A DNA stretch of 64,000 nucleotides, from assembly GCF_013359815.1 (NCBI RefSeq), contig NZ_JABMCF010000035.1, forward strand, positions 1 to 64,000. Direction: 5' to 3'. Made by a program: the position numbers and the translations under genes. This stretch comes from Curtobacterium flaccumfaciens. Its GTDB lineage: Bacteria > Actinomycetota > Actinomycetes > Actinomycetales > Microbacteriaceae. The notes under the pieces were generated by a model that saw only the letters and a program-made list of their open reading frames with translations, was not told the origin of the DNA and made no database searches. Below are positions 11,834 through 14,759 of the stretch, piece after piece (position 1 is the first letter of the stretch; each line of letters opens with the position of its first letter).

Positions 11834-12772
11834 TCAGGGAACGGTGTGTCCGGCCGCGGTGAAGATCCGGTACCACTCCTCGCGCGACAGCTCGACGTCC
11901 GAGCCGGCTGCCGAGTCCCGCACGCGCTGCGGGTTCGTGGTGCCGAGGACGACCTGGAAGTGCGCGGGGTGGCGGGTGATCCACGCGACCGCGATGCCGG
12001 TCGGGGTGACACCGTGTGCGGCGGCGACCTCCTCGAGCACGTCGTTCAGCTCGGCGTACTGCTCACGGTCGCCCAGGAAGACGCCGTCGAAGAAGCCCTT
12101 CTGGAACGGCGACCAGGCCTGCAGCGTGATGTCGTTGATGCGCGAGTAGTTGAGGATGTCGTTGTCGCGGTCCGCCGACTGCTCGAGGCCGCCCATGTTC
12201 GCGGTCAGGCCCTGCGAGATGACGTTGGCGTGGGTGATGCTCAGCTGCACTTGGTTGAACGCGAGCGGCTGGCGGACGTGCTTCTTGAGCAGGTCGACCT
12301 GGCCGGGGGTGTGGTTCGAGACGCCGAAGTGGTGCACCTTGCCGGCGGCGTGCAGCTCGTCGAATGCCTTCGCGACCTCTTCCGGCTCGACCAGGGCGTC
12401 GGGGCGGTGCAGCAGCAGGACGTCGACGTACTCGGTCTGCAGTGCCTCGAGCGACTCGTGCACGGACTCGAGGATGTGCTCGTACGAGAAGTCGAAGTAC
12501 GCGCCCTTCGGCGTCGGCCGGATGCCGACCTTGGTCTGCAGCACGATCTCGGCGCGTTCCGCGGGCGTCAGCGTGACGGCGGCGCCGAACCGCTCCTCGC
12601 AGCCGTGCCACTCGCCGTAGACCGCTGCGTGGTCGAACATGTTCACGCCCGCATCGCGCGAGGCGCTGTAGAGCGAACGGATGTCCTCGTCGCTCATGTC
12701 GTTGATCCGCATCAGTCCGACGACGACGTCAGAGGCGGTGAGGTCTGTCTGTGGCAACTCCAGTGTCTTCAC
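11834..12772 (-). CDS. Aldo/keto reductase, YdhF-like
   Basis: 312-residue NAD(P)H-dependent oxidoreductase. The active-site segment FDHAAVYGEWHGCEERFG (about 46-63) gives the conserved Asp and Tyr, QTKVGI supplies the Lys and LLLHRPD the His, followed by the HFGVSNHTPGQV strand. NPQRVRDS near the end is the cofactor-phosphate loop. This arrangement fits the COG4989 (YdhF) branch. Start GTG 12772 with CAGGAT seven bases before it. Natural substrate unknown. Confidence 0.88.
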   Translation of the reverse strand: MKTLELPQTDLTASDVVVGLMRINDMSDEDIRSLYSASRDAGVNMFDHAAVYGEWHGCEERFGAAVTLTPAERAEIVLQTKVGIRPTPKGAYFDFSYEHILESVHESLEALQTEYVDVLLLHRPDALVEPEEVAKAFDELHAAGKVHHFGVSNHTPGQVDLLKKHVRQPLAFNQVQLSITHANVISQGLTANMGGLEQSADRDNDILNYSRINDITLQAWSPFQKGFFDGVFLGDREQYAELNDVLEEVAAAHGVTPTGIAVAWITRHPAHFQVVLGTTNPQRVRDSAAGSDVELSREEWYRIFTAAGHTVP

Positions 12773-12889
12773 GCCGTCGATCCTGCCAGCCGGTCCCCGG
12801 CACAGGCAGGCCCTGCCAGTACCTCAAGGCCAAACCCCAGAGCGGACTATGTTGGCCACCTCTCTGCTAAATTACGGACCAAGTCCCGC

Positions 12890-13342
12890 ATGGTTCGGCT
12901 GCCTCGATTCATGCCAGAAATGAGGGTGAAATTGGTCGTCGACGTTTGGGTTGTCGCGATAGGCCTGCCCATCGTGCTGATGGCGGGAATCGTAATTCCT
13001 CGGAAGATCGTAAGAGGACAAGGCGGCTGGAGGCGAGCCGATTTTTACTTAGGGCTTGAGCTGTGCTGGACGACGCTAGGGGCCTGTCTCCTTGAGTACT
13101 ATTCCTTGGCTAAAGATCTGACGGGCAGCACCGTCGGGCTTGGCTTTGCGCAACGCATTCAAGCGAATACCACGCTCGCTATCGTAACCCTCCTTGTTAT
13201 GATGCTCGTTCTTGCGCTGCATCAATCCTGGGAGTCCTCCGTGCAACGGATCAAACAAATAGTTGCACTCGGCGTTGTGGGCAACGCATTGGGAGTAAGT
13301 CTCTTCGCTGCTTTTGTTTTGTTCGTGCAGGAGGTGTCATGA
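12890..13342 (+). CDS. Small polytopic membrane protein, partner of the TIR gene
   Basis: 150 residues from ATG 12890; ATGs at 12911 and 12920 are in frame and equally possible, since no clear Shine-Dalgarno site decides between them. Four hydrophobic segments are visible, at about 16-38, 51-69, 90-110 and 124-147, separated by short charged loops (IPRKIVRGQGGWRR; SSVQRIKQ). No family recognised. The stop TGA overlaps the ATG of the TIR gene (ATGA at 13339), so the two are translationally coupled and probably work together. Base composition is near 50 percent G+C by eye, far below the flanking genes, with A/T-ending and ATA/AGA codons, which suggests horizontal acquisition. Confidence 0.65.
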   Translation: MVRLPRFMPEMRVKLVVDVWVVAIGLPIVLMAGIVIPRKIVRGQGGWRRADFYLGLELCWTTLGACLLEYYSLAKDLTGSTVGLGFAQRIQANTTLAIVTLLVMMLVLALHQSWESSVQRIKQIVALGVVGNALGVSLFAAFVLFVQEVS

Positions 13343-13971
13343 AGTTCTGGTCGGAACGATCAAGTGCGCGGAGATGGTTGTTGCTGATCGCGCTCGCTCT
13401 GTTCAGCGCGCTGGTTGTCCTCGTCGTGCTCACAGCGGTTTTTCGACTCGGCCCTGACGGGGCGACTAGTGAGTACATCCCCGCTCTTGTCTCTGTATTC
13501 GCCGCAGTTACCGGCGTTGTCATCGGCATACTCCGCGAAAGCGTTTCGGATCGGAAGTTGCGGAAGCAGGTATTCATTGCGTATGCACACGAAGATCGAC
13601 AAGTTGCGGAATCAATCGCGGCGACCGTGCGGTCGGCCGGGTATAGCCCATGGCTGGACGTCGAACAAGTGTTGCCAGGTGAAAACATCGAAGCCTCATT
13701 GGAGCGAGCAATCCGGAGTAGCGGAGCGGCGATCTTCATTGTTCCCTCCGGGCCGCTTGCTCAGTCTTCCTATCTGCAGCGAGAACTGTTCGAAATCACG
13801 CAAAGGATCAGGCCACTCGGGCGAGATGTCCAGCCCATACTGCCGATAGTGCAATCCGAAGGGCAGGTGAAAAATCTCCCGGCGAACCTTTCAGGTATTT
13901 CAGCGCTCTCGGTAGGGGACGCTGCCTGGGAGAGCCGTTTGACTGACGCCCTTCGGCGCGCATTCGCCTAG
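13339..13971 (+). CDS. Membrane-anchored TIR-domain protein
   Basis: 210 residues. Two N-terminal membrane segments (about 13-34 and 46-66) are followed by a short basic linker (RKLRK) and a TIR domain (about 76-209). TIR signatures: KQVFIAYAHEDRQVAESIAA (betaA with the Y-x-H-E-D variant of S-Y-x-x-x-D), GYSPWLDVEQVLPGENIEAS (BB-loop side), SSGAAIFIVPSG, and SSYLQRELFEI, whose Glu is placed like the catalytic Glu of NAD-hydrolysing TIRs. TIR domains often act as NAD-consuming effectors in bacterial defence. The coupling to a four-TM protein and low G+C make a defence-type module plausible, but function is inferred only. Confidence 0.8.
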   Translation: MKFWSERSSARRWLLLIALALFSALVVLVVLTAVFRLGPDGATSEYIPALVSVFAAVTGVVIGILRESVSDRKLRKQVFIAYAHEDRQVAESIAATVRSAGYSPWLDVEQVLPGENIEASLERAIRSSGAAIFIVPSGPLAQSSYLQRELFEITQRIRPLGRDVQPILPIVQSEGQVKNLPANLSGISALSVGDAAWESRLTDALRRAFA

Positions 13972-14003
13972 GGCGCCGCGCCAGTCGTTGGCGTCCCTGG
14001 AGC

Positions 14004-14759
14004 TCAGTGGACGGAGAACCCGCCGTCCACCGCGATGGACTGCCCGGTGACGTAGGCCGACCCGGGTCCAGCGAGGAACACCGCCGCCGCGGCGAAGTCC
14101 GACGCCAGCCCGTTCCGGCCGACCAGCGTCCGCGCGGCGAGGGCCGCCACCGTCGCCGGGTCGGACCCGAGTCGCTCGTTGAGCGGGGTGCGCACGAAAC
14201 CGGGGACGAGGACGTTGGAGGTGACCCCCTGCGCGGACCAGGCCTCTGCCTGGGACCGGGCCAACGCCTCCAGGCCCGCCTTGGAGACCCCGTACGCGCC
14301 GCTGGCGGCGAAGGGGCGGTGGGCCTGCTGCGAACTGATCGACACGATCCGCCCGTACCCACGGGCCGCCATGCCGGGTGCGAGCCGCTGCCCGAGCACG
14401 AACGGCGCGTCGAGGTTGACGGCCATCGTGGCGTCCCAGGTGGCCTCGTCGAGTTCGGGCATCGGCGGCCGCAGGTTGATCCCGGCGGAGTTCACCAGCA
14501 CGTCGACGTCCCCGGCGGCGTCCGCGAGTGCGTGTGCGCCAGCGCGGGAGGAGAGGTCCGCGACGATGCCGTCAGCCGAGCGGCCCGCCTGGCGGATGCC
14601 GGCGACGGTGGTGTCGATGGTCGCGGACGTCCGGGCGGCGATGAGGACGTGGGCACCCGCGTCGGCGAGTGCGGTGGCGATCGCTCGGCCGATGCCGGAG
14701 CTGCCTCCCGTCACGAGTGCGGTGCGGCCGTCGAGGCCGAAGAGCTGCTGCAGCGACAT
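14004..14759 (-). CDS. SDR-family NAD(P)-dependent oxidoreductase
   Basis: 251 residues, a classical short-chain dehydrogenase. Cofactor motif TGGSSGIG (about 17-24), NSAG at about 87-90, and catalytic Ser, Tyr and Lys in SISSQQAHRPFAASGAYGVSKAG. The C-terminal AVDGG block is typical. Start ATG 14759 is six bases after TACCCT (complement of 14766-14771), in a divergent promoter region shared with the methyltransferase gene. Similar enzymes include gluconate 5-dehydrogenase, but the substrate cannot be assigned. Confidence 0.87.
   Translation of the reverse strand: MSLQQLFGLDGRTALVTGGSSGIGRAIATALADAGAHVLIAARTSATIDTTVAGIRQAGRSADGIVADLSSRAGAHALADAAGDVDVLVNSAGINLRPPMPELDEATWDATMAVNLDAPFVLGQRLAPGMAARGYGRIVSISSQQAHRPFAASGAYGVSKAGLEALARSQAEAWSAQGVTSNVLVPGFVRTPLNERLGSDPATVAALAARTLVGRNGLASDFAAAAVFLAGPGSAYVTGQSIAVDGGFSVH

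What the first reader, a model, noticed from the sequence alone, without database searches (positions are those of the whole stretch)
12890..13971. AT-rich island with a coupled membrane protein and membrane-anchored TIR protein
Seen: a stretch of about 1.1 kb whose base composition is clearly lower in G+C than both sides, holding two overlapping genes (ATGA at 13339). The first encodes a four-TM protein with no recognised family; the second has two TM segments and a TIR domain with a Glu placed like the catalytic one. Known: bacterial TIR domains are often NAD-consuming effectors of defence systems such as Thoeris. Inference: the four-TM protein may be sensor or membrane partner, giving a compact two-gene defence or cell-death module unlike the ones I can name. 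No mobility gene or att site is visible.
Basis: partly seen in the sequence, partly recalled or inferred. Interest (0 to 1): 0.78.

Follow-up and report, generated by a model that had tools for sequence, protein, structure and literature searches.

The report
Two-gene membrane TIR defence cassette
Two overlapping genes in a low-GC stretch of a high-GC bacterium encode a predicted four-helix membrane protein and a TIR protein that is predicted to be membrane-anchored, and related genes lie side by side at the cargo site of two prophages, one of them in E. coli, so the pair is likely a compact anti-virus module that would kill the infected cell.

Summary
In detail: the island is the lowest-GC stretch of the window (0.565; mean 0.718) and holds two genes overlapping by ATGA. 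Gene 1 is a predicted 4TM protein (likely start TTG 12932, 136 aa); gene 2 a predicted 2TM-TIR protein (210 aa) with a catalytic-type Glu149. Both are P2-like prophages with the pair between genes A and Q, a published hotspot of anti-phage genes; one is in two E. coli genomes. Against a fixed pair: a distant 4TM relative on Variovorax plasmids has no TIR neighbour, and nine further relatives have unread contexts. The cassette is absent from the 65 other genus genomes searched. No library used names the pair as a system; PHROG families of unknown function match each protein. Best reading: abortive infection by a membrane sensor that clusters a membrane-bound TIR NADase; a messenger-pore reading is the main rival. 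Nearest in print: the three-gene TIR plus TM system of phage AC1. New variant of a known kind; activity untested.

The parts
12827..13985 (.). low-GC island; the stretch without similarity to the related intervals of the genus
   Evidence: GC 0.565 vs 0.718; in the 40 related intervals aligned, similarity stops at 12816-12831 on the left, and in the 32 where the SDR gene follows it resumes at 13986-14006
12922..12926 (+). likely Shine-Dalgarno (GAGGG) for gene 1
   Evidence: read from the sequence, 5 bases before TTG 12932; inference
12932..13342 (+). gene 1: predicted four-helix membrane protein, 136 aa (longer in-frame starts at 12890, 12911, 12920, 12926)
   Evidence: phrog_25392 1.9e-18; AlphaFold2 four long helices, pLDDT 73.8; four relatives of 136 aa; alignment
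13329..13334 (+). likely Shine-Dalgarno (AGGAGG) for gene 2, inside gene 1
   Evidence: read from the sequence; inference
13339..13342 (+). ATGA overlap of the stop of gene 1 and the start of gene 2 (likely translational coupling)
13339..13971 (+). gene 2: predicted 2TM-TIR protein, 210 aa; Pfam TIR_2 at residues 78-191, catalytic-type Glu149
   Evidence: Pfam TIR_2 1.5e-16; phrog_24215 2e-12 over residues 15-195; best structure matches of the model are TIR proteins
11834..12772 (-). left flank: aldo/keto reductase gene, conserved in the genus
   Evidence: Pfam Aldo_ket_red 1.7e-51; this side of the DNA query matched in 66 of 66 genus genomes, own included
14004..14759 (-). right flank: short-chain dehydrogenase gene
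   Evidence: Pfam adh_short_C2 6.4e-50

Best explanation
The island is a two-gene cassette, found in none of the 65 other genomes of the genus searched and so likely acquired laterally, that likely works as an anti-phage abortive-infection module: the predicted four-helix membrane protein would sense infection at the membrane and cluster its partner, whose predicted membrane-anchored TIR domains would then destroy NAD+ and stop the cell. Shown: the two overlapping genes, the TIR domain with its Glu, the same pairing at the cargo hotspot of two P2-like prophages, and a GC content of the pair below its surroundings in all three loci. Inferred: membrane topology (conserved basic loop 1, and with it loop 3, on the cytoplasmic side where the TIR domain must lie), sensing by the 4TM protein, activation by clustering, and NAD+ cleavage. 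Untested: any defence activity.
For: Pairing: 4TM profiles A2, A4 and A5 find two loci in IMG/VR, the same two each time, both with a 2TM-TIR gene starting at the base after the 4TM stop. The TIR profile A3, with its own patterns, finds the same two loci. The window TIR aligns with both partners through the TM part as well (25-26% over 192-200 residues). Place: both pairs lie between a replication gene and the portal gene of P2-like prophages, a region shown to hold anti-phage systems (PMC9122126, section 10 read). One of the two is also in 2 of 5426 complete E. coli genomes. Foreign look: pair GC 0.56, 0.33 and 0.35 in loci of 0.72, 0.50 and 0.46. Catalysis: Glu149 invariant in 3 of 3, aromatic residue at 145. 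Clustering: TIR NADases work by self-association (PMC12847820, passages read). Anatomy: the 4TM loops average 11-18 residues, so there is little room for a ligand-binding domain; loop 1 is the most conserved region (0.71, 4.4 Lys+Arg), loop 2 the least conserved of the loops (0.36).
Against: No functional data. Rousset et al. write that transmembrane proteins of known anti-phage systems are believed to be effectors, not sensors (PMC9122126, passage; 'not sensors' is my gloss). Loop 3 is not basic (1.5 Lys+Arg against 1.8 Asp+Glu) and TM2 and TM4 are as conserved as loop 3 (0.63, 0.64 and 0.62), so the topology argument is modest. The Variovorax 4TM relative has no TIR neighbour (27.5% identity to the L083 protein, no significant pairwise match to the window protein), so the 4TM family may have other partners. 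Only three distinct contexts show the pair; for the nine database relatives P0004-P0012 the neighbours could not be read. The window TIR found no relative but itself at E <= 1e-3, although that search also missed the E. coli partner. The two flanking genes are metabolic, and I did not scan the rest of the window for defence genes.
Confidence: 0.45

Rival explanations
1. Thoeris-like signalling: the TIR enzyme senses infection and makes a nucleotide messenger, and the 4TM protein is the effector that opens or disrupts the membrane.
For: Proposed in print for the TIR plus TM proteins of phage AC1 (PMC9122126, section 10), whose authors write that TM proteins of known anti-phage systems are believed to be effectors; TM-macro ThsA effectors of Thoeris cluster their TM parts on nucleotide binding (PMC11204291, abstract and passages); four TM helices could form a pore.
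Against: The 4TM protein has no soluble domain that could bind a messenger (helices 19-42, 54-77, 84-115, 120-147; loops of 11-18 residues on average). The TIR protein is itself predicted to be membrane-anchored, which a maker of a diffusible signal does not need.
Confidence: 0.24
2. Toxin-antitoxin type pair: the first gene holds the TIR toxin inactive in the membrane and phage attack releases it.
For: Order and 4-base overlap (small first gene, likely toxic second gene) resemble toxin-antitoxin operons (the comparison is recalled); the pair stays together in the prophages.
Against: Gene 1 is a membrane protein with conserved motifs, and no DNA-binding antitoxin domain is seen.
Confidence: 0.13
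3. An orphan effector of a cyclic-nucleotide system (Pycsar or CBASS) whose cyclase lies elsewhere.
For: Weak similarity to Pfam CAP12-PCTIR_TIR, E 1.2e-4, 22.6 bits against a cut-off of 24.7, and to PADLOC 'Effector' models.
Against: No cyclase was recognised among the neighbouring ORFs read in the three loci (not all were scanned); apart from TIR no known nucleotide-binding domain was found in either protein.
Confidence: 0.06
4. Not a defence module: a membrane stress or signalling pair, or decaying acquired DNA with no role.
For: No functional data; a distant 4TM relative sits beside SecB-like and release-factor-like genes.
Against: Both reading frames are intact with likely ribosome sites; the same pair sits in prophage cargo sites of a kind rich in defence genes.
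Confidence: 0.12

Closest known systems
Three-gene TIR plus TM system of P2-like phage AC1 (Rousset et al. 2022, PMC9122126); the DefenseFinder paper PMC9090908 lists Rst_2M_1M_TIR (passage), which I recall to be this system
   Same: A TIR protein encoded with membrane proteins, at the same A-Q hotspot of P2-like prophages as the homologues of this pair; protects E. coli against lambda, LF82_P8 and P2
   Different: Three genes (by its label 2TM, 1TM, TIR) against two here (4TM, 2TM-TIR). Sequence kinship not testable: AC1 was not found in the phage collection by TIR similarity nor among the 51 records with a similar portal gene
Thoeris (SIR2-SLOG and TM-macro forms; type III model NF058526)
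   Same: TIR enzyme plus partner gene, abortive infection
   Different: No SIR2, SLOG or macro domain in the partner; window TIR scores 26.3 bits against a cut-off of 220 for NF058526; the partner here is only membrane helices
phrog_25392 and phrog_24215 (PHROGs v4, unknown function)
   Same: Window 4TM protein matches phrog_25392 at 1.9e-18 over residues 16-148 of 150, and window TIR protein matches phrog_24215 at 2e-12 over residues 15-195 of 210
   Different: No function or system name is attached
TIR effectors of Pycsar and CBASS (CAP12-PCTIR_TIR, SAVED-TIR)
   Same: TIR domain as a likely NADase effector
   Different: No cyclase or nucleotide sensor recognised; below the Pfam cut-off

Membership tests
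TIR domain superfamily, enzymatic type | TIR fold | tested here: met
   Pfam TIR_2 1.5e-16, score 61.4 against a cut-off of 28; 28 PDB chains at E <= 0.001, by title all TIR-domain, SARM1, SPARTA or TIR-STING type entries (model pLDDT 68.7)
TIR domain superfamily, enzymatic type | catalytic Glu at the position of solved bacterial TIR NADases | tested here: met
   Glu149 aligned with a Glu of PdTIR (3h16) and BtTir (7uxr), invariant in 3 of 3; that this Glu is the catalytic one is recalled
TIR domain superfamily, enzymatic type | NAD+ cleavage | not testable with these tools
   needs an enzyme assay
Family phrog_25392 + phrog_24215 pair | both genes adjacent, 4TM first | tested here: met
   window, L082, L083
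AC1-type system (Rst_2TM_1TM_TIR) | three genes: a TIR protein and two separate transmembrane proteins | tested here: not met
   the island has two genes only, with 4TM and 2TM-TIR
AC1-type system (Rst_2TM_1TM_TIR) | sequence kinship with the AC1 proteins | tested here: inconclusive
   no AC1 sequence was obtained; no PADLOC model so named among the hits, but whether the library has one is unknown
Thoeris | ThsA partner with SIR2-SLOG or TM-macro domains | tested here: not met
   gene 1 has no such domain
Thoeris | ThsB-type TIR protein | tested here: inconclusive
   weak hits of the window TIR to ThsB models, best 4.9e-4
Pycsar / CBASS | nucleotide cyclase in the operon | tested here: inconclusive
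   ORF lists around the window pair, L082 and L083 were read and the two-gene units hold none; not every neighbour was scanned against families
Anti-phage defence system | protection against phage | not testable with these tools
   needs phage challenge

The most novel reading that the evidence does not exclude
The pair founds a new, phylum-crossing family of bacterial membrane TIR receptors that signal by direct contact in the membrane: a four-helix sensor switches a membrane-bound TIR enzyme on, with no diffusible messenger, much as a Toll-like receptor passes a signal to TIR domains.
Probability: 0.3. Interest if true: 0.76.

Novelty: new variant of a known kind. Interest (0 to 1): 0.55.

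Why it matters
TIR domains are the shared currency of immunity in bacteria, plants and animals, yet the best-studied bacterial TIR systems (recalled) mostly use soluble TIR proteins with messengers or soluble sensors. A two-gene unit of under 1.1 kb whose only partner is a small membrane protein would be among the smallest TIR systems, would place both sensing and killing in the membrane, and would be easy to test. The result also gives the function-unknown families phrog_25392 and phrog_24215 a testable role.

Tried and rejected

Other TIR genes of the genus and order as the same system: rejected. The 14 open frames reported (8 from the genus at E <= 1e-3, including the own-genome gene on C35; 6 from the order at E <= 1e-8) show no N-terminal TM pair. 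Two weak phylum hits of the 4TM profile: the G666 locus encodes an unrelated-looking 235-aa membrane protein; G471 was not examined further.

Searches for the 4TM protein that found nothing new: genus 1 of 66, own only; family 1 of 398, own only; class 1 of 296, own only, 0 of 14 control genomes; GTDB genome contigs; viral contigs with the first narrow profile; plasmids; phages. The L083 TIR protein: phages none at 1e-5, six unconvincing partial matches at E 3-6; viral contigs only itself. The L082 pair in E. coli genomes: only a 74-base match in the two genomes that carry the L083 pair. Paper searches for a two-gene 4TM plus TIR system found none; I saw listings and abstract starts, and passages of the papers named. 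Supplementary tables (such as the list of P2 hotspot systems in PMC9122126) could not be read, so prior listing there is not excluded.

Integrase- or tRNA-borne insertion: no support. Promoter scan: none found, 0.5 expected by chance.

Full report
What is there. The island at 12827-13985 is the lowest-GC stretch of the window: 0.565, while all 1159-base windows average 0.718 with sd 0.028. It lies between an aldo/keto reductase gene and a short-chain dehydrogenase gene, both on the minus strand. It holds two plus-strand genes that overlap by ATGA at 13339-13342. Gene 1 has several in-frame starts; TTG 12932 has GAGGG five bases upstream and gives 136 aa, the length of four of its database relatives (P0004, P0005, P0007, P0009), so it is the likely start rather than ATG 12890. 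Gene 2 (210 aa) has AGGAGG four bases upstream.

The proteins. Gene 2 has two strong hydrophobic segments (14-32, 47-65) and a TIR domain (Pfam TIR_2 1.5e-16). Glu149 aligns with a Glu of solved bacterial TIR domains and is invariant in its two distant homologues, with Tyr or Phe four residues before. The AlphaFold2 model from three sequences is of modest confidence (pLDDT 68.7), and its best PDB matches are TIR proteins. Gene 1 is predicted as four long helices (pLDDT 73.8, 11 sequences); plain hydropathy sees three of them clearly. It has no named family: among 11 members the best Pfam match has E 0.0042, the best NCBIfam match 0.0015, and PADLOC gives none at E <= 1, while all 11 match phrog_25392. 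Invariant or nearly invariant are, among others, K39, R42, W47, D51, F52, Y53 (loop 1), G55 (helix 2), H111, Q112, W114 (loop 3), Q123 and N132 (helix 4); numbering of P0001. Mean column identity is 0.71 for loop 1, 0.62 for loop 3, 0.63 and 0.64 for helices 2 and 4, and 0.36 for loop 2. Loop 1 carries on average 4.4 Lys+Arg against 1.2 Asp+Glu; loops 2 and 3 have no net positive charge. By the positive-inside rule, recalled, loop 1 would be cytoplasmic, and with four helices loop 3 lies on the same side, where the TIR domain must be. That is inference.

Co-occurrence. The plain sequences are too far from their relatives: P0002 found only itself and P0001 three relatives besides itself in 5.8 billion proteins, and the 4TM protein or its first profile had no hit outside the own genome in genus, family, GTDB, viral, plasmid or phage collections. 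The database holds the window's own proteins on six contigs, so other sequenced records likely carry the cassette. A second round with an alignment gave ten proteins, eight of them relatives without a named organism, and the widened profile A2 found two of 2.9 million viral contigs. In both, a 200-202 aa 2TM-TIR gene starts at the base after the 4TM stop. The TIR alignment A3, with its own patterns, found the same two contigs; repeat scans with A4 and A5 found no more. These scans need short conserved motifs, so they are not exhaustive; the protein search, for one, did not list the E. coli proteins. Identities: window to L082/L083, 4TM 38/32%, TIR 26/25%; L082 to L083, 4TM 49%, TIR 36%. So the 4TM protein is the more conserved partner in each of three comparisons. 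phrog_24215 covers residues 15-195 of the window TIR protein, TM part included. By contrast, the 14 other TIR open frames reported from the genus and order lack the TM pair.

Place in the prophages. L083 is found at 100% identity in 2 of 5426 complete E. coli genomes, annotated as hypothetical protein plus toll/interleukin-1 receptor domain-containing protein, between the replication endonuclease and the portal protein of a P2-like prophage. In L082 the neighbours are a replication protein (35% to the annotated one) and a portal protein (82%). This A-Q interval is the hotspot described by Rousset et al. 2022 (PMC9122126; section 10 read whole, and passages), where several cargo systems protect against phages. 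One of them, from phage AC1, has a TIR gene and transmembrane proteins in three genes. In all three loci the pair is poorer in GC than its surroundings: 0.56 of 0.72, 0.33 of 0.50, 0.35 of 0.46.

A result against a fixed pair. Three Variovorax plasmids carry a distant 4TM relative (27.5% identity to the L083 protein, E 4e-4; profile A4 E 1.9e-14 in a small set; no significant pairwise match to the window protein). In the one read in detail it lies beside SecB-like and release-factor-like genes, without a TIR gene; the next ORF is another membrane protein. The 4TM family therefore may have other partners, or this one may be a remote cousin. For nine database relatives (P0004-P0012) the neighbours could not be read.

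Origin at this site. None of 65 other genomes of the genus carries the 4TM gene, a genome listed as the same species (G007) included. Of the 65, I fetched the interval in 40; none matches either protein (the printed head of its query file shows P0001 only, but P0002 also had no match at these places). In 32 of these the SDR gene follows: 6 have only 8-33 bases between the genes, 25 have a gene of which one copy was shown to have a maltokinase N-terminal cap domain (Pfam 6.6e-26 in L050), and 1 has neither. In the other 8 the SDR gene is not at that place or only a short piece of it matches; 6 of them have the cap-domain gene, and one of the remaining two (L079) is partly masked. The own genome gave no match to that gene (the tool warns that an empty answer without a control shows little). 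The remaining 25 genomes were not fetched. So the cassette either replaced that gene or entered an emptied site. No flanking repeats, tRNA or integrase mark the ends. The same interval holds other insertions in relatives.

Mechanism. Best reading: abortive infection, with the 4TM protein as membrane sensor and scaffold and the TIR protein as a clustered NADase. Reasons: the TIR protein is itself predicted to be anchored; the 4TM protein has no soluble domain for a messenger; its most conserved loop would face the side of the TIR domain; and TIR NADases switch on by self-association (SpbK, PMC12847820, passages read). The rival, a Thoeris-like messenger that opens the 4TM protein as a pore, was proposed for AC1, fits the view that TM proteins of such systems are effectors, and has a parallel in TM-macro Thoeris (PMC11204291, abstract and passages read). 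Nothing here measures activity.

Novelty. It is not Thoeris by its partner gene, it has no cyclase in the two-gene unit as Pycsar and CBASS would need, and by gene content it is not the AC1 three-gene system, though kinship with AC1 could not be tested. I file it as a new variant of a known kind, TIR-based membrane-linked defence. The paper searches showed no description of a two-gene 4TM plus 2TM-TIR system; supplementary tables could not be read.

Noticed in passing
L060 1910-3552 (relative G029, same interval between the reductase and the cap-domain gene): Another low-GC insertion with two overlapping ORFs (143 and 404 aa) without any Pfam or PADLOC match at E <= 0.1, at the same site of a different genome of the genus.
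   Followed up: partly
L059, and by size also L062, L067, L070 (same interval); L068: Insertions of about 4.9 kb in four relatives; in L059, the one whose ORFs were listed, a 1151-aa ORF looks like a carboxylic acid reductase and a 219-aa ORF like a phosphopantetheinyl transferase (labels recalled). L068 holds 13.6 kb. The interval is a variable site of the genus.
   Followed up: partly
window 12300-12826 and relatives L074 (G014), L042 (G007): The left flank is 99% identical to G014, listed as same genus only, but 96% to G007, listed as the same species: a hint of recombination across species at this locus.
   Followed up: no
L090 4811-6976 (Variovorax plasmid): A 4TM relative in a row with a SecB-like protein (Pfam 2e-14) and a short RF-1-type release factor (1.7e-20), followed by a 187-aa membrane ORF: an odd gene set that may be another use of the 4TM family.
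   Followed up: partly
L002 301-1812 (own genome, contig C35), L004, L007, L098: Proteins of about 500 aa with an N-terminal TIR domain and a long C-terminal part, in the own genome and in genomes of the genus and order; not the same system.
   Followed up: partly
L087 4832-5674: A 280-aa ORF with three hydrophobic segments (phrog_3630, unknown function) just upstream of the 4TM gene in the E. coli prophage; no such ORF between replication gene and pair in L082.
   Followed up: partly
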